Shown here: in pieces, positions 1-5,179 of the stretch
Layout of the letters: every line of letters begins with the position of its first letter
How positions within the stretch are numbered: position 1 is the stretch's first letter
Origin: a bacterium ADurb.Bin374
Lineage (GTDB): Bacteria; Riflebacteria; Ozemobacteria; Ozemobacterales; Ozemobacteraceae
Direction: 5' to 3'
Length of the DNA: 6,927 nt
Assembly (NCBI GenBank): GCA_002068715.1
Contig: MWAR01000565.1
Location: 1 to 6,927 of the forward strand
Translations under genes and position numbers: made by a program
Notes under the pieces: generated by a model
Database searches by the model: none
What the model was told of the DNA's origin: nothing
What the model saw: the letters and a program-made list of their open reading frames with translations, nothing else

Positions 1-582
1 GGCCGCCACAACCGCACCGAGCGCGACGAAGAAGGCGAACTCCATCGTCCGCACCCTGATGCCCATCACCTGCGCGGCGTCGGGGTCGAGGAACGCGTAG
101 ACGGTGGGCCTGAGGCTCACCAGGAGCCAGACCGCGCACGGCGCCAGAACGGCCATGATGAGCCACAGATCATGGGGTGATGCGAACAGCAGGCTTCCGA
201 ACAGCAGGTTTTTCACCTTCTCGAGACCGAAGCCGCTTTTCGCGACCAGCACGACACTGCCGGCAGAGAACGCCACGAACAGCACACCGAGGAAGGTGTC
301 ACGAGGCAGATTCAGCCACCGCTCGAACGGCAGGCCGAGAAGGATTACGACCAGCATCGCCGTCAGAAGGGCGCCGACGAACGCGGGCCAGCCAAGGAGC
401 AGGCCGAGGGCGATACCACAGGCCGCGGCTTCGGACAGCGTCACCCCGATGAAGACGACCCGTTTGAGGACGACGAACACGCCGAACAAGGCCCCCGTAG
501 CCGCGATCAGCAGGCCTACCGGAAGGGCCGTGCCGTAGATCTCCATGACGGTCGAGACCATCGATGCGAGGGATTCATGCAT
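1..582 (-). CDS. znuB: Zinc/manganese ABC transporter permease (ZnuB type), 3' end cut by window edge
   Basis: This is the inner-membrane channel subunit of a metal ABC importer of the ABC-3 family. It would work with the ATPase and binding protein encoded just upstream. The 194 residues visible are strongly hydrophobic, with several membrane segments (about 16-39, 52-83, 97-114, 138-157 and 180 onward). Family landmarks are a GVFVVLKR stretch (34-41) followed by IGVTLSEAA (45-53), where relatives usually read ALSHA; NLLFGSLL (125-132); and the DPDAAQVMGIRVR segment (166-178) before the next helix. Full-length relatives are about 260-290 residues, so roughly a third is missing off the left edge. 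The start ATG at 582-580 has GGAGGT eight bases upstream and overlaps the ATPase stop by eight bases, implying translational coupling. Zinc is inferred from the neighbouring binding protein; manganese or iron cannot be excluded. Confidence 0.9.
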   Translation of the reverse strand, partial: MHESLASMVSTVMEIYGTALPVGLLIAATGALFGVFVVLKRVVFIGVTLSEAAACGIALGLLLGWPAFVGALLTAMLVVILLGLPFERWLNLPRDTFLGVLFVAFSAGSVVLVAKSGFGLEKVKNLLFGSLLFASPHDLWLIMAVLAPCAVWLLVSLRPTVYAFLDPDAAQVMGIRVRTMEFAFFVALGAVVAA

Positions 583-1300
583 GCGCCCGCACCTCCGGTT
601 CATCGAGATGAAGATCACGCCAGGGCATCATGCGAGCTTTGCCGTGGTTCACCCGGCATACGTCGTCGGTCAGGTGACGGACGAGATCGAGGCCGTGCTG
701 GGCGAACAAAACGGTTTTGCCGTCCCTGGTCGCCAGTTCGTGCAGGAGATGGATGACCTCGCGCTCGGAATCCGCATCGAGCGAGGCCGTCGGCTCGTCC
801 ATCACGAGCACGTCGGCCCCGGTCACCAGCGCCCGGGCGATGAGCACCTTCTGCCTCATGCCGCCCGAAAGCTCATGAAACGCCTTCATCGAGTGGGCGG
901 ACAGGTTGAACCGCACCAGCAGCCGGTCGACGTGTTCCCGGTCGGCCGGAGACGGTCGGCCCCACCAGCCCAGGCGCGGATACAGCCCCATCATGACGAT
1001 GTCACGCGTGATGACGGGGAACAGCAGATCGATGCTCTGGTGCTGGGGAACGAAGCCGGCAGGCACGGTTTCGAACGGGGTCTCGATCGTTCCTGCACGA
1101 AGCGGCAGAAGCCCCAGAATCGCTCGCAACAGCGTTGTCTTGCCGGCTCCGTTCGGGCCGACGAACGGCACGAATGCCCCTCGCGGGATTTCCAGGTCGA
1201 CGTCGTCCAAAACCAGGTCCTGGTCGTAGCCGACGCACACGCCTCGGCAAAGGACAACGGGACCGGCCACGGCTTTCGCCGCGCCTGCCGTTCCGGTCAT
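575..1300 (-). CDS. znuC: Zinc/manganese ABC transporter ATP-binding protein (ZnuC type)
   Basis: This is the cytoplasmic ATPase that powers the metal importer; it is 241 residues, normal for the family. All nucleotide-binding elements are present in order: Walker A GPNGAGKT (48-55), Q-loop Gln 86 in VPQHQ, signature LSGGMRQ (144-150), Walker B VLVMDE (164-169), D-loop SLD (173-175) and switch His 202 in FAQHG. The Q-loop context, with SIDLLFP just after it, is typical of the ZnuC/MntB-like group. The reading frame stays open to 1357, but the start at 1300 is preferred: its ATG overlaps the stop of the binding-protein gene as ATGA, a GGGGAG ribosome site lies four bases upstream, and the product begins close to the expected N-terminus. 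The short Ala/Gly-rich N-terminal tail (1-14) is not part of the conserved fold. The 3' end overlaps the permease start by eight bases. Confidence 0.93.
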   Translation of the reverse strand: MTGTAGAAKAVAGPVVLCRGVCVGYDQDLVLDDVDLEIPRGAFVPFVGPNGAGKTTLLRAILGLLPLRAGTIETPFETVPAGFVPQHQSIDLLFPVITRDIVMMGLYPRLGWWGRPSPADREHVDRLLVRFNLSAHSMKAFHELSGGMRQKVLIARALVTGADVLVMDEPTASLDADSEREVIHLLHELATRDGKTVLFAQHGLDLVRHLTDDVCRVNHGKARMMPWRDLHLDEPEVRAHA

Positions 1301-2382
1301 CGCGCTCCCCCCTGCACGCCCGCCTCGGTGGCCATTGAGACGAGAGCGTCGATCCAATGGTCCACGAGACAGAAGTAATCGCCGACGCCGGCTGAGCCGC
1401 CGACGTAGTACGGCACCATGCGGTATGTCGCCCCGGTCGCCTCGGCGATCGATTTGACGGTCTGCTCGTCGAAGTAGTTGACCGACAACATGACCTTGAT
1501 GCCGTCGCGACGCATCCGGTCCTGCAACTCCCTGGTATGCTTCGGAGACGGCGGAATGCCGGGTTTTGGCTCGATGGTATCGATCTGGACGAGGTCGAAA
1601 TCGTCGCAGAAGTAGATCCAGTTTTTGTGATACGTCACGATGGGAAGGCCACGCAGCGGCAGCATCCTGCCCGTCCAGCCGCCCAGCATGTCGGACAACG
1701 GCTTGCCTTCGAAGGTGTTCTGCTTCAGGAAGTCGTGCAGTTTGCCTTCCTGATGAAGCTTCACCAGCGTTTCTCCGCCGAGGATCTCGACCAGTTCAGA
1801 TCCATAGAGACGTTTATAAAATTCGGCCTCGAGCTGACCCAGGCGGGTCCGGAACTCCTGCGCATGCGCCGGGGCATTTTTTTCGAGGCCGATCTCGATG
1901 TTCTCGATGACCCGAAGCATGTTGATGGGACTCACCGTGATGTGAGGGTTTCCATAGATATGAAGTCCCCCTTCGCTTCGCGACAGGACGGTCGGAATAT
2001 CCTTCATCCGCACCCCCTGGGCGGCCGCCACGTAGCCGACCGCCTCGCTCCTGATGCGGGGATTGCCGGACTTGTCGATGGCGGTGGGCAGCCACATTTC
2101 GAGATCGAGCCCCGTCGCGATGAGCAGGTCTGCCTCGCGCAGCATCTGGACGAACGAGGGTTTCGGTCTGATGAAATGGGCGTCCTGGTCACCCTGGACG
2201 ATATGCGACACGACGACATGCCCGCCGCCGATCCGCCGGGCGAAGTCGGCATAATCGGGAATCGTCGTGACGACGCGCAGCGGCCGTTCCCCATTTTCGG
2301 AACCGTTTGCGGCCAGAAGAGGAGCGCACCCGGCCCACAGAGCGGCAACGATGGCGATACAAATACATATATTTTTATTCAT
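1297..2382 (-). CDS. znuA: Periplasmic zinc-binding protein of ABC importer (ZnuA/TroA family)
   Basis: This is the high-affinity periplasmic receptor that delivers metal to the ABC complex; it has 361 residues. A signal peptide covers about residues 1-25 (hydrophobic core 5-18). A Cys at 19 preceded by WAG does not make a good lipobox, so a soluble protein is more likely than a lipoprotein. Cluster A-1 ligands are recognisable: His 69 in DAHF, His 147 in NPHIT and His 252 in TYHKNW, with an acidic residue near 305-306 (NYFDEQ) as the likely fourth. The conserved EPKPGIPPSPKH segment (271-282) follows. Unlike E. coli ZnuA there is no His-rich loop between the first two ligands. Instead there is a long segment (about 193-245) before the third ligand His. 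The ATG has AAAGGG eight bases upstream, overlapping the porin stop; the intergenic gap is 13 bases. The first codons are AT-rich. Zinc is favoured by the three-His site; manganese is possible. Confidence 0.92.
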   Translation of the reverse strand: MNKNICICIAIVAALWAGCAPLLAANGSENGERPLRVVTTIPDYADFARRIGGGHVVVSHIVQGDQDAHFIRPKPSFVQMLREADLLIATGLDLEMWLPTAIDKSGNPRIRSEAVGYVAAAQGVRMKDIPTVLSRSEGGLHIYGNPHITVSPINMLRVIENIEIGLEKNAPAHAQEFRTRLGQLEAEFYKRLYGSELVEILGGETLVKLHQEGKLHDFLKQNTFEGKPLSDMLGGWTGRMLPLRGLPIVTYHKNWIYFCDDFDLVQIDTIEPKPGIPPSPKHTRELQDRMRRDGIKVMLSVNYFDEQTVKSIAEATGATYRMVPYYVGGSAGVGDYFCLVDHWIDALVSMATEAGVQGGAR

Positions 2383-2395
2383 ATTTCAAACCCTT

Positions 2396-3868
2396 TCAGT
2401 AGCGGTCGTGCAGATGAGGGCCGCCGGCCCAGATGCACTGCAGCGTGATGCGCCGGTCATCCTGCTCCATGTTGTGCCCCTTGCGATAATCGAATTCGAG
2501 CCTGTAATGCACCCAGGGACTCTGGCTCCACGTCCAGTAGGGACTGACCTGGAACTCGTAGGGGTCATGCCCCGACACCATGTGCAGGGCATTCGGATAC
2601 AGCTCCGTCGGCGTGATGGCGGCGGCATACGGTTTCGAATCGGGCCGATAGTAGTCGAGGCGGATACCGGACTCGAGAATCCGGTTCAGCTTCCAGTGAA
2701 GGTTGGTGTACGCACCCCAGGCACGTGCCGTATCGCGGTCTCCCGCCGCGGTAATGATATCGCGGGCAAGATAATATCCCTCGGTGCGCCAGCAGAAGTT
2801 GCGATACCGCATCCGGTCCGTGGGTTCCCACAGGCGTGTCAGATCGAATCCCAGTGCGTAGATCGGCCGCGACTCGTCATGGATGGAGATCGCCGGCGCC
2901 GCGCCCACGTTCCAGCGGTCGTTGGTGCCCGTCAGACCGGTGACGCCCCATTCGAGATAGGTCGAGGCATCCAGATCCTTGAATTGCTTGTAGTGAGCCA
3001 GGAGGCAGGGAATACCCCGGGTGTTTTCGGCGAACAGCGCATCATTTTTCGCATGGGTGAGCTGCAGCGTGAACTCCCGTCCCATTCCCTTCTCTGCCGG
3101 CAACTGCCAGTCGAACGAAACGCCGATCTGCTCCAGCGGGCCGCCAAAAAGACGCCGGAGAGCGAGCGGGAAGTCCACCTGGTCGAGAGCGTGCTGATGC
3201 CACCGGCCCACGACACCGAACTGCTGATGGAATTTGCCCAGCGTCAGGTTGAGATCTTTCGAGAAACCGACGCGGGAGATGTAGGCTTCGCAGATTTCCG
3301 TTCCTTCCTCCTGGATGGGGAACGAGGCTTTGAACCGGGTATCCGGATCGAGATAGCATTCCCCGTGAATGCCGAGCGAGCGGAACGTACCGCGCGCCTG
3401 TTCGCGCACGTCTTCTTGCGAGCGGAACTGGGCGATGACGTCACCGGTCATGCTGATCTCGGGGTTCAACGCCTGCTGCCCCAGCTCGCCGGCCTTGAAT
3501 GTGACGGTCTGCGCAGACGGCGTGGCTCCCGTCGTCGTTTCCAGGCCAGCCGCGCCAAGGGCGCCGGCGGCCACAAGCCGGAGCCGTTCCCGCTCGTCGG
3601 CAGGCGATGATGTGACCTGCGCTGATTGCAGCATCGGAGCGGCCGGTTCGCAGGTGCCGGAGCCAAGCCTGTTCACCTGTGCCTCGAGACGTGCAATGGT
3701 CGTTTCGTATTTTTCACGCATTGCCGACATCTCTGACCGCAGACCGGCTATTTCCCCACGCAGCGTTTCAATGTCGGCGTTCGAGGCGGGTTCCGCCGCG
3801 AATGCGCCGTGCCGGCAGGGCGCAAAAGTTAAAACGAGCAGGTAGAAAGCAATTGATATATATTTCAT
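2396..3868 (-). CDS. Outer-membrane beta-barrel protein with N-terminal coiled coil, putative metal porin
   Basis: The product (490 residues) has a signal peptide (1-25, ending AFAA). A regular heptad pattern follows from Ile 33 to Leu 68 (hydrophobic residues at 33, 36, 40, 43, 47, 50, 54 and 61), predicting a short, possibly trimeric coiled coil. After a low-complexity linker (70-125), the rest looks like beta-barrel strands with alternating hydrophobic residues, many aromatics and no TonB-receptor plug. A conserved-looking block at 211-235 contains GKFHQQFG and RWHQHALDQVDFP and is rich in His and Asp. The C-terminus is an amphipathic strand ending in GPHLHDRY, with a terminal aromatic as in outer-membrane proteins. 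It resembles hypothetical porin-like proteins known beside zinc transporters. I infer passage of metal into the periplasm from its position directly ahead of the binding protein. The frame is open to 3973, but the ATG at 3868 is chosen because of GGAGA five bases upstream and the signal peptide. Confidence 0.75.
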   Translation of the reverse strand: MKYISIAFYLLVLTFAPCRHGAFAAEPASNADIETLRGEIAGLRSEMSAMREKYETTIARLEAQVNRLGSGTCEPAAPMLQSAQVTSSPADERERLRLVAAGALGAAGLETTTGATPSAQTVTFKAGELGQQALNPEISMTGDVIAQFRSQEDVREQARGTFRSLGIHGECYLDPDTRFKASFPIQEEGTEICEAYISRVGFSKDLNLTLGKFHQQFGVVGRWHQHALDQVDFPLALRRLFGGPLEQIGVSFDWQLPAEKGMGREFTLQLTHAKNDALFAENTRGIPCLLAHYKQFKDLDASTYLEWGVTGLTGTNDRWNVGAAPAISIHDESRPIYALGFDLTRLWEPTDRMRYRNFCWRTEGYYLARDIITAAGDRDTARAWGAYTNLHWKLNRILESGIRLDYYRPDSKPYAAAITPTELYPNALHMVSGHDPYEFQVSPYWTWSQSPWVHYRLEFDYRKGHNMEQDDRRITLQCIWAGGPHLHDRY

Positions 3869-3893
3869 ATTATTCTCCAATCGTGAACCGAAT

Positions 3894-3912
3894 CGCCGAC
3901 ACGGCGTCGGCG
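3894..3912 (-). other. Intercistronic RNA hairpin between His/Cys-rich gene and porin gene
   Basis: A perfect 7-base-pair GC-rich stem (CGCCGAC / GTCGGCG) with a 5-base loop lies in the 71-base gap, 16 bases before the porin ribosome site. No run of U follows it on the minus strand, so it is not a standard intrinsic terminator. It may shape processing, stability or relative expression of the first gene against the rest of the operon. Confidence 0.5.
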
Positions 3913-3939
3913 GTCTGAGGAACTTCGGAAAACCGGGGT

Positions 3940-4410
3940 TCAGCTCACAATGGGAGGACCGCGCGGCAGGCACGGCCGAAAGACGCTCCGGGAGATATCA
4001 ACATCCGGAACGTGTTCGGTGCATCTTGCGGACCGAATGTATAACACCGGCTCTCCCGCCGGTGTGATATCACTCGAGCGCACCAGGTCGGACAGCGAAC
4101 AAATCAGACAATGTTCGGACGGGCAGGGAAACACTTTTCCTGAGGGTGCCCATTGCGAAACGTGGTTCGCACCTGCAATTGCCACTGTTTGAGATTGGTG
4201 GTGCGGGTGCGGACCGAATTCACTTCCCGCCTCGTCGGGTGCCGCCACATGCACATGCGGAAACCCGGGGCAGGCATGGTCGGGCTCATCATGGCGATGT
4301 TCGCACTTTCCGCTGAGAGCGAAATGCAACAAACCGGCGGCAAGAAACCCGACCTGAAGAATCAGGCACAGAACCGCTACCGATTTCCACCATCCACGTT
4401 TTATGAGCAT
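3940..4410 (-). CDS. Small His/Cys-rich membrane-anchored protein, putative periplasmic metal binder
   Basis: This is the first gene of the uptake operon; I do not recognise a named family. From the ATG at 4410 it has 156 residues: basic residues near the N-terminus, one hydrophobic helix (about 9-32), then a presumed periplasmic region dense in His and Cys. Over residues 35-104 there are ten His and five Cys, in clusters such as CEHRHDEPDH, FPHVHV and FGPHPHHQ, then CPSEHCLIC (96-104). The last motif recalls the HCPIC-type motifs of small DUF2946-like proteins. Such composition suggests binding of zinc or another soft metal; buffering or handover to the porin or ZnuA is inference. The start is uncertain: a TTG at 4446 would add 12 residues and begins about 30 bases after the predicted transcription start, and neither start has a clear ribosome site. 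It lies 71 bases upstream of the porin gene. Overlapping plus-strand frames lack any such pattern. Confidence 0.65.
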   Translation of the reverse strand: MLIKRGWWKSVAVLCLILQVGFLAAGLLHFALSGKCEHRHDEPDHACPGFPHVHVAAPDEAGSEFGPHPHHQSQTVAIAGANHVSQWAPSGKVFPCPSEHCLICSLSDLVRSSDITPAGEPVLYIRSARCTEHVPDVDISRSVFRPCLPRGPPIVS

Positions 4411-4484
4411 CGTTTTCGACTTGCAGTCATCAGGAATGTCGATCAATCCAGAGTATCGATTTTGAACATTGGACCGTTTCGGGC

Positions 4485-4500
4485 ATTATATATCCATAAC
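4485..4500. promoter_or_regulatory. AT-rich dyad over the -10 box, possible Zur/Fur-type operator
   Basis: The plus strand reads ATTAT, six bases, ATAAC: a near-perfect inverted repeat (four of five positions pair) covering the -10 box and part of the promoter spacer. E. coli Zur sites have a similar GTTAT...ATAAC core, and znu operons are commonly repressed by Zur in this position. The similarity is short and lies in an AT-rich promoter, so chance is a real alternative. Confidence 0.3.
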
Positions 4501-4503
4501 CCA

Positions 4504-4511
4504 GACCGGTC
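4504..4511. repeat. Perfect 8-base palindrome overlapping the -35 box
   Basis: GACCGGTC overlaps four bases of the -35 hexamer of the uptake-operon promoter. It is a perfect palindrome but does not extend further on either side. It could be part of an operator; it is too short to claim. Confidence 0.25.
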
Positions 4512-4558
4512 AAACCCATCACCTCACCTGAGACCCCCCTCCACTCTGCGGTCAGTTC

Positions 4559-5179
4559 TCATTTCAGGCCTTTTGCCACCACGAACGACCCTTTGCCGAA
4601 GCCATCCTGAATCATTGACGGCAACGCTCCGGCAATGAGCGCCTGTTTGAAGAACACTTCATGGAAACCGGCTTCCGCAAGGTATTTACCGACTTCCCGC
4701 GCAGAGACAAAGAGAGCGTCTTTATAAAAAACGTCTGAAGCACTCCTTCTCTTGTACTCCTGGCCCAATTCGCTTTCCCTATCGACGAATCCGACGACGA
4801 CGCACCCCTGTGGTTTCAACACGCGGCATGCCTCTCGGAAAGTCTCGAGAACATCGTCGACGAAGCAGATGGTCGTCACCATCAGCACGCAATCGAACGC
4901 GGCATCGGGAAACGGCAACCGCTCCGCCACGGCCCGCACGACGCTCACCCCACGGTTTCTGGCCTTCGTCGCCATCTGTTCCGACGGTTCCACGCCGATC
5001 GTCATCCCCAGGGGCACAGCAAACCTGCCGGAACCGGCACCCACTTCCAGGCCTCTGATGCAAGGCGAAGGCATCATTTGCCGAATTATCCCCAATTCGG
5101 CATTGTAGAGATCGGCATGCCGATCGAACCAACTATCATACCTGTCACTATATTTATCAAAAGATTCTGTTCTGGCCAT
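4559..5179 (-). CDS. Class I SAM-dependent methyltransferase (UbiE/Methyltransf_11-like)
   Basis: This is a cytoplasmic methyltransferase of 206 residues, a normal length for a stand-alone enzyme of this fold. SAM-binding motif I is GLEVGAGSGRF (43-53). The acidic end of strand 2 is Glu 64 in GVEPSEQM. The post-motif AERLPFPDAAFDCVLMV (85-101) fits the Methyltransf_11 group, and CRVLKPQG matches the usual motif before strand 5. The N-terminal FDKYSDRYDSWFDR segment (7-20) is common in the UbiE-like branch. The substrate cannot be told: there is no ArsM-type cysteine set, so arsenite methylation is unlikely. The start at 5179 lacks a good ribosome site (GAAAG lies over 20 bases upstream), but nothing better is in frame. 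It sits alone between the efflux and uptake genes; 112 bases separate its stop from the TTG of the next gene, and they hold that gene's promoter. A link to metal metabolism is not shown. Confidence 0.9.
   Translation of the reverse strand: MARTESFDKYSDRYDSWFDRHADLYNAELGIIRQMMPSPCIRGLEVGAGSGRFAVPLGMTIGVEPSEQMATKARNRGVSVVRAVAERLPFPDAAFDCVLMVTTICFVDDVLETFREACRVLKPQGCVVVGFVDRESELGQEYKRRSASDVFYKDALFVSAREVGKYLAEAGFHEVFFKQALIAGALPSMIQDGFGKGSFVVAKGLK

What the first reader, a model, noticed from the sequence alone, without database searches (positions are those of the whole stretch)
1..4513. Zinc-uptake operon with its own outer-membrane porin and a His/Cys-rich anchored protein
Classical znu loci encode only the ABC importer. 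Here the sequence shows one promoter followed by five co-directional genes. The first two are a membrane-anchored His/Cys-rich protein and a coiled-coil beta-barrel protein, and the last three are binding protein, ATPase and permease with coupled starts and stops. That layout suggests a complete outer-to-inner membrane route for zinc without TonB. The ABC part is established knowledge; the role of the two extra proteins is inferred from position and composition.
Basis: partly seen in the sequence, partly recalled or inferred. Interest (0 to 1): 0.72.

Follow-up and report, generated by a model that had tools for sequence, protein, structure and literature searches.

The report
Ribosome-stalling leader of zinc operon
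The small His/Cys-rich gene at the head of this zinc-uptake operon looks like a leader peptide that stalls its own ribosome and senses metal while it is being made, switching on a dedicated outer-membrane pore and a metal pump, an arrangement found in many bacterial phyla.

Summary
The operon is real. On the minus strand a sigma-70-like promoter precedes a 156-aa His/Cys-rich ORF, a coiled-coil plus 16-strand porin, and a ZnuA-type binding protein, ATPase and permease with overlapping starts and stops.

The reading of gene 1 changes. It is best explained as a CruR/CutF-like metal-sensing arrest leader, not a zinc shuttle: N-terminal hydrophobic segment, CxxC 45 residues before RGPP, then three residues and stop. 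Of 80 loci, 72 carry such a leader, 1 a broken copy, 2 none, 5 are cut off. The spacing is 43-46 residues in 71 of 73 leaders (CruR: 45); little else is conserved.

In the window the Pro-Pro codons pair with the porin's ribosome-binding site in a 17-bp stem that a stalled ribosome would open. Such pairing exceeds controls over 63 loci, but 23 of them lack it.

The porin fold resembles OprP/OprO/DcaP, with conserved HxH motifs in the constriction loop and C-terminal tail. The stall, the metal (probably zinc) and the direction of control are inferred, not shown.

The parts
4485..4513 (-). sigma-70-like promoter, TTGACC (4513-4508), 17 nt, TATAAT (4490-4485)
   Evidence: 11 of 12 matches; 1 found, 0.6 expected in shuffles
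3940..4410 (-). leader ORF, 156 aa: N-terminal hydrophobic segment, His/Cys-rich middle, CLIC, RGPP, IVS, stop (alternative TTG start at 4446)
   Evidence: counterparts upstream of the porin in 72 of 80 loci
4099..4125 (-). CPSEHCLIC, the CxxC metal-binding motif candidate, 45 residues before RGPP
3952..3963 (-). RGPP codons CGC GGT CCT CCC, presumed arrest site
   Evidence: RGPP arrest shown for other peptides in PMC12992588
3939..3956 (-). 5' arm of the stem: CUCC of the Pro-Pro codons, tail codons and stop
   Evidence: 4+13 pairs with 3875-3892
3894..3912 (-). 7-bp inner hairpin between leader stop and porin start
3875..3892 (-). 3' arm of the stem, containing the porin Shine-Dalgarno GGAG (3878-3875)
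2396..3868 (-). porin, 490 aa: signal sequence, coiled coil 30-69, 16 predicted strands 137-482, RWHxH constriction-loop motif, C-terminal PHLHDRY
1297..2382 (-). ZnuA-type metal-binding protein; H69, H147, H252 conserved
575..1300 (-). ABC ATPase of the importer
1..582 (-). ABC-3 permease, cut by the window end

Best explanation
The first gene is a metal-sensing arrest leader (uORF) for a zinc-type import operon. When metal is scarce, the ribosome making the leader stalls on RGPP just before the stop. It then covers the Pro-Pro codons, whose CUCC otherwise pairs with the GGAG of the porin's ribosome-binding site, so the porin is translated; the binding protein, ATPase and permease follow through a short gap and overlapping starts. 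When metal is plentiful it binds the CxxC and neighbouring His/Cys of the nascent chain, 45 residues from the arrest site and so about at the mouth of the ribosome tunnel (tunnel length recalled), and releases the stall. The ribosome then terminates, the stem closes and the porin start is hidden. The porin is a dedicated outer-membrane channel with His ligands that feeds the periplasmic binding protein. Shown by sequence: the motif, its fixed spacing, its linkage to this operon, the complementarity. Inferred: the stall itself, metal binding, zinc as the metal, the direction of control, and His-based selectivity of the porin.
For: Leader in 72 of 80 porin loci, C..x to RxPP spacing 43-46 in 71 of 73 leaders; the spacing was not used in choosing them. 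25 of 31 independent loci with enough upstream sequence also have it, spacing 42-47, there taking the C..x motif nearest to 45. Background: R[AGS]PP in the last 16 residues of 13 of 3258 other ORFs. CruR has CXXC, RAPP and 45 residues between them (PMC9426467); RGPP gives the most stable arrest of the motifs tested in PMC12992588. Stem in the window: 17 bp, z -2.79. Over 63 loci the porin ribosome-binding site pairs with the RxPP segment at 0.478 against 0.118 shuffled; opening cost 5.9 kcal/mol against 3.0 with the leader end masked; at the binding-protein start with the same geometry 0.061 against 0.440 (65 loci). First Pro codon CCT in 43 of 73 against 13 of 117 Pro-Pro pairs in porin and binding-protein genes. 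11 of 31 leaders match DUF2946 at E<=1.
Against: No experiment. The window's own protein does not match PF11162 even at E 1. 23 of 63 loci show almost no such pairing, so the RNA switch is not universal. With the leader end masked, the window's site can re-pair with early porin codons (opening cost 4.5, against 7.9 in full and 4.0 with a shuffled leader end), so release would be partial. CruR acts through Rho instead, and CutF reacts to copper in the opposite direction. 18 of 73 leaders have C..Y/F/H and not C..C. 2 of 80 loci (L022, L024) and 6 of 31 independent loci lack a leader.
Confidence: 0.72

Rival explanations
1. The leader stalls as in CruR, but control is by Rho-dependent transcription termination between leader and porin; the pairing with the ribosome-binding site is secondary.
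For: This is the mechanism shown for CruR (PMC9426467). 23 of 63 loci lack the pairing. Leader-to-porin gaps have a median of about 110 nt, and long gaps are noted for CruR homologues.
Against: Pairing of the arrest codons with the ribosome-binding site is well above shuffled and positional controls. Base counts show no marked C-over-G stretch in the window leader (crude).
Confidence: 0.25
2. The arrest leader responds to a metal other than zinc (copper, manganese, iron, cobalt or nickel), and the importer carries that metal.
For: Studied relatives CruR and CutF respond to copper; PMC9973294 argues that some relatives may bind Ni/Co. The manganese MntC model scores the binding protein nearly as well as the zinc AztC model (58.1 against 63.6 bits, both below cut-off), and the solved relatives include zinc, manganese and iron proteins. 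A DUF2946 leader heads feoAB in L034.
Against: Binding protein with three invariant His in 15 of 15 aligned, the zinc-type ligand set (pattern recalled). The ATPase and permease also score best with the zinc Azt models, below cut-off.
Confidence: 0.25
3. One reading: gene 1 is a membrane-anchored metal-binding protein that hands zinc from porin to binding protein or buffers it.
For: His/Cys-rich composition and hydrophobic N-terminus in the window; first place in a metal operon.
Against: Only 7 relatives besides the window's own protein were found by similarity; 14-28% identity across phyla, 61% for L015, where the porin keeps at least 32% (best segment). [quoted passage not shown]
Confidence: 0.08
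4. The leader is a SecM/ApdP-like monitor of protein export or membrane insertion, and metal plays no part.
For: N-terminal hydrophobic segment and RAPP-type C terminus are shared with Sec/YidC arrest peptides (abstracts and listing).
Against: The downstream genes are a metal importer, not export machinery, and C..x at fixed spacing plus His/Cys residues are conserved.
Confidence: 0.07

Closest known systems
CruR of Bordetella pertussis (DUF2946 uORF upstream of bfrG), PMC9426467
   Same: CXXC, 45 residues, C-terminal RxPP; heads an operon with an outer-membrane metal transporter
   Different: Copper; TonB receptor and PepSY protein downstream; works through Rho. Here ZnuA-type ABC importer and porin, RGPP, and an anti-Shine-Dalgarno stem; the window protein is below PF11162 detection
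CutF of Rhodobacter capsulatus (PMC9973294)
   Same: Nascent exported protein with a Cys motif and Pro-rich C terminus; stem hides the next gene's Shine-Dalgarno sequence
   Different: Copper increases output of a multicopper oxidase; CxxxC; arrest was not detected directly
RAPP/RGPP arrest peptides (ApdA, ApdP and others; PMC12992588, PMC10951233)
   Same: C-terminal RxPP in small exported or membrane proteins encoded upstream of the regulated gene
   Different: The classical ones monitor Sec/YidC; no His/Cys sensor
ZnuABC / AztABC zinc importers
   Same: PF01297, ABC_tran and ABC-3 proteins in one operon
   Different: Below the NCBIfam equivalog cut-offs for both; operon extended by leader and porin
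OprP, OprO, DcaP porins
   Different: 11-14% identity; conserved HxH in the constriction loop and C-terminal tail

Membership tests
DUF2946 / CruR leaders | PF11162 match by the window protein | tested here: not met
   No PF11162 hit at E<=1 for the window protein; among the 31 leaders 11 match at E<=1, best 2.4e-7; the L008 leader passes the cut-off (25.3 against 23.7 bits). The window protein is therefore not filed as DUF2946.
DUF2946 / CruR leaders | CXXC motif | tested here: met
   CLIC in the window; C..C in 55 of 73 leaders, C..Y/F/H in the other 18
DUF2946 / CruR leaders | RAPP-like motif at the C terminus | tested here: met
   RGPP, 3 residues before the stop; RAPP 47, RGPP 14, RSPP 5, RPPP 3, KSPP 2, KAPP 2 of 73
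DUF2946 / CruR leaders | 45 residues, plus or minus one or two, between the motifs | tested here: met
   45 in the window; 43-46 in 71 of 73; CruR value
DUF2946 / CruR leaders | first gene of a metal operon | tested here: met
   directly upstream of the porin and ZnuA-type gene
DUF2946 / CruR leaders | arrest relieved or changed by metal | not testable with these tools
   needs in-vitro translation
DUF2946 / CruR leaders | Rho-dependent termination after the leader | not tested
   only crude base counts in the window
CutF-type control | stem hiding the next Shine-Dalgarno sequence | tested here: met
   17-bp stem in the window; above controls in 63 loci as a group, absent in 23 of them
ZnuA-family metal-binding protein | PF01297 over cut-off | tested here: met
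   139.7 bits against 29
ZnuA-family metal-binding protein | zinc-type three-His site | tested here: met
   H69, H147, H252 in 15 of 15 aligned; the ligand rule is recalled
OprP/OprO/DcaP porins | 16-strand porin fold | tested here: met
   mean pLDDT 77.8; Foldseek TM-scores on the query 0.44-0.50 for OprO and DcaP
OprP/OprO/DcaP porins | sequence-family match (Pfam Porin_O_P or BBP2) by the window protein | tested here: not met
   nothing over cut-off; BBP2 E 0.11 (cut-off 26.2, score 12.1); 11 of 26 relatives match BBP2 and 2 match Porin_O_P at E<=1
OprP/OprO/DcaP porins | trimer | not testable with these tools
   single-chain model only

The most novel reading that the evidence does not exclude
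Zinc-type import in many bacterial phyla is governed by a class of nascent-chain metal sensors in which the Pro-Pro codons that arrest the ribosome also serve as the anti-Shine-Dalgarno sequence of the next gene, so one sequence is both brake and switch. They control a dedicated metal porin with a His-bearing constriction loop and a C-terminal HxH tail. A DUF2946 leader of the same build stands before feoAB in one genome, pointing to a general family tuned to different metals by its His/Cys segment.
Probability: 0.5. Interest if true: 0.83.

Novelty: new variant of a known kind. Interest (0 to 1): 0.72.

Why it matters
Bacterial zinc uptake is generally described as controlled by the repressor Zur at the DNA (recalled). 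A leader that reads metal on the ribosome would add a second, post-transcriptional layer. It accompanies this porin-importer pair in lineages known mostly from metagenomes. It would extend CruR/CutF-type control from copper to zinc-type import, link it to a porin in place of a TonB receptor, and give a simple physical mechanism (arrest codons equal anti-Shine-Dalgarno) that a two-gene reporter can test. The porin is a candidate answer to how zinc crosses the outer membrane without TonB.

Tried and rejected
Zinc-shuttle reading of gene 1: set aside because conservation is confined to the arrest-leader motifs.

Porin by sequence: no Pfam or NCBIfam family over cut-off; a profile search of solved structures gave mainly coiled-coil matches. 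The fold comparison was needed.

Operator search: exact 7-base inverted repeats upstream of 20 of the leaders gave no shared motif apart from one repeat in L002 and L003; no Zur box is claimed, and this was a crude test.

ATPase outside Riflebacteria: the ATPase profile, grown from the window's protein, rang directly beside the importer in 8 of 80 loci (L001-L007, L039), and an ABC ATPase lies just upstream of the leader in L036. I listed further ORFs only for L008, L011, L024 and the gap in L019 and recognised none. A missed ATPase is possible.

Covariation of the stem was not quantified: only L015 and L001 are close relatives with DNA. L015 shows changes from G.U to Watson-Crick pairs by eye, but its GTG start was not picked by my automatic rule, nor was the right start of L001, so neither is in the 63 loci. 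Of 73 leaders, 7 got no porin start and 3 (L001, L012, L071) had gaps over 260 nt.

Literature: searches listed no paper whose title or abstract start describes an RxPP leader on a zinc-type ABC/porin operon. Figures and supplements of PMC12992588 and PMC9426467, which list downstream gene classes, were not available, so such a case could be listed there.
Full report
Anatomy. All genes in the finding are on the minus strand. A sigma-70-like promoter at 4513-4485 is followed by a 156-aa ORF (4410-3940), a 490-aa ORF (3868-2396), and a ZnuA-type binding protein (2382-1297), ABC ATPase (1300-575) and ABC-3 permease (582 to the window end), the last two starting inside the end of the gene before. 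Upstream lie a methyltransferase, an outer-membrane efflux protein and the end of an RND pump. The closest relatives of the porin include a protein named as from Candidatus Ozemobacteraceae and the Ozemobacteraceae and Riflebacteria loci L015 and L001.

Conservation of the operon. A scan of species genomes with a porin alignment gave 193 relatives, of which the best 80 were kept. The binding protein directly follows the porin in 77 of 80; the other three loci end at or within 151 nt of the porin. Titles of the leader-bearing loci name, as deposited, Riflebacteria, Planctomycetota, Hydrogenedentota, Auribacterota, Armatimonadota, Acidobacteria, Zipacnadia, Kiritimatiellota, Lentisphaerales, Elusimicrobia, Zixiibacteriota, Krumholzibacteriia, Latescibacterota, Omnitrophota, Calditrichota, Ignavibacteria/Melioribacteraceae, Bacteroidetes and Chlorobiota; nearly all are metagenome-assembled genomes and some labels are doubtful. 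Within the phylum of L015's genome, 10 of 39 genomes hold the porin. The exact window order with the ATPase occurs in L001-L007, 7 of 80; most others have one or two permeases and no ATPase recognised alongside.

The first gene. Similarity finds only 8 proteins, one of them the window's own, because it evolves fast: 14-28% identity to the window across phyla, 61% for L015, against 32% or more (best segment) for the porin in the 80 loci. Looking by position instead, an ORF immediately upstream of the porin with a hydrophobic N-terminus, Cys/His residues and a C-terminal [RK]xPP was found in 72 of 80 loci. One more (L049) has an in-frame stop before the motif; L022 and L024 have upstream sequence but no such ORF; L009, L039, L046, L061 and L069 are cut within 340 nt. 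With the window this makes 73 leaders. The selection favoured R[AGS]PP, hydrophobicity and Cys/His content but not spacing. The distance from C..x to RxPP is 43-46 residues in 71 of 73 (exceptions L043 and L044), and RxPP lies 1-11 residues from the end. In 31 aligned leaders the only invariant residues besides the start are the first Cys of the motif and R, P, P (the 31 were chosen with R, not K). Among 3258 other ORFs of 60-260 aa in the loci only 13 have R[AGS]PP in the last 16 residues; the one of these with a C..x motif at 43-47 proved to be another such leader, before feoAB in L034.

Independent loci. Profile searches in two further genome sets gave porin relatives in 29 of 392 and 9 of 395 genomes, many of them distant. 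Six of these 38 loci repeat earlier ones. Of the 32 new ones, one is cut, and 25 of the remaining 31 have a leader; spacing 42-47, here taking the C..x motif nearest to 45. Two more Riflebacteria-phylum loci, L092 and L093, have leaders ending in KAPP.

Link to known arrest leaders. CruR of B. pertussis (PMC9426467; passages and section 10 read) is a DUF2946 uORF: copper sensed by CXXC relieves arrest at a C-terminal RAPP, 45 residues separate the motifs, and Rho then terminates transcription. CutF (PMC9973294; passages and section 11) is a DUF2946-like nascent exported protein acting on a stem that hides the next Shine-Dalgarno sequence; its authors suggest that not all relatives are copper-specific. 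PMC12992588 (passages) shows that RAPP and RGPP support arrest, RGPP giving the most stable one, with the two Pro codons of CruR in P and A sites, and finds such uORFs ahead of TonB receptors and copper genes. The word zinc does not occur in the main text of these three papers. Eleven of 31 leaders match PF11162 at E<=1, best 2.4e-7, but the window's own does not; in a genome search the L008 leader passed the cut-off, while weak matches at E<=1 also rang in 9 of 14 control genomes, 1 of them over the cut-off. I therefore say the window protein works like CruR and do not file it as a DUF2946 member. In Caulobacter a DUF2946 protein heads the zinc-efflux czr operon (PMC4176598, passages).

RNA evidence. 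In the window, CUCC of the Pro-Pro codons plus the tail and stop (3956-3939) pair in 4+13 base pairs with 3892-3875, which ends in the porin's GGAG (z -2.79, 3 of 200 shuffles at least as stable). Over 63 loci with a usable porin start (10 of 73 dropped), the ribosome-binding site pairs with the RxPP segment at mean probability 0.478, against 0.118 when the leader end is shuffled (Wilcoxon p 5e-6); 38 of 63 exceed 0.3 and 23 are below 0.05. An earlier run with looser start picking gave 0.444 against 0.123 in 69 loci. At the binding-protein start with the same geometry the value is 0.061, against 0.440 at the porin start (65 loci, looser starts). Opening the site costs on average 5.9 kcal/mol in full, 3.0 with the leader end masked, 4.2 with it shuffled; masking lowers the cost by over 1 in 45 and raises it by over 1 in 3 of 63; the window goes from 7.9 to 4.5, its shuffled value being 4.0. 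The first Pro codon is CCT in 43 of 73 leaders, against 99 of 503 Pro codons in leader bodies, 240 of 1322 in porins and 13 of 117 Pro-Pro pairs in porin and binding-protein genes (Fisher p 3e-12). Codon choice could also serve the arrest itself. In the window the freed site can re-pair with early porin codons, a weakness for the simple switch. The loci are related to each other, so the p-values overstate independence.

Metal. The binding protein keeps H69, H147 and H252 in 15 of 15 aligned, the three-His pattern of zinc-type proteins (recalled). Its best NCBIfam neighbour is the zinc AztC (63.6 bits), but manganese MntC is close (58.1), both far below cut-off; ATPase and permease score best with AztA and AztB, also below cut-off. 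Solved relatives bind zinc, manganese or iron by their names. A Fur-family-like gene lies upstream in 5 loci (one checked by Pfam). Zinc is likely, not proven.

Judgement. The surprise is that the odd first gene most likely belongs to the regulation and not to the transport route.

Noticed in passing
L034:2648-3067 (+), before 2896-5159: A second leader (CLIC ... RAPP), over the DUF2946 cut-off (25.7 against 23.7 bits), stands before feoA (PF04023) and feoB (PF02421), directly upstream of the porin operon's own leader; the leader type also heads an iron(II) uptake locus.
   Followed up: partly
L008, L011, L024 and many other loci outside Riflebacteria: Porin and binding protein are followed by one or two ABC-3 permeases with no ABC ATPase recognised alongside; in L036 an ATPase lies just upstream of the leader. 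The ATPase may be encoded elsewhere.
   Followed up: partly
L012, L033, L042, L045, L053, just after the leader stop: Several Planctomycetota loci have a short inverted repeat (such as CAGAG...CTCTG) immediately after the leader stop, seen by eye; possibly a different RNA switch where the Shine-Dalgarno pairing is weak.
   Followed up: no
L015, L016, L020, L022, L024, L026, L028, L035: A His-rich multi-span membrane protein without a Pfam family (L024 copy) is encoded upstream of the operon, in several cases next to a Fur-family gene; possibly another metal transporter of the same regulon.
   Followed up: no
window 6927-4559 (-): End of a CusA/CzcA-like RND pump, an outer-membrane efflux protein and a SAM methyltransferase lie just upstream on the same strand, so metal efflux and import genes may be neighbours.
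   Followed up: no
L006, L007: Contigs titled Erysipelotrichia and Methylomirabilis carry Riflebacteria-like operons; their genomes (G027, G010) were drawn in the phylum search around L015, so the deposited titles are probably wrong.
   Followed up: partly
L049:7300-7960: The leader frame has a stop codon just before the RAPP part; sequencing error and decay cannot be told apart.
   Followed up: no
L001-L004, L092, L093 upstream of the operon: NifX-like and Mrp/NUBPL-type iron-sulfur ATPase genes and, in some loci, MBL-fold hydrolases sit near the operon.
   Followed up: no
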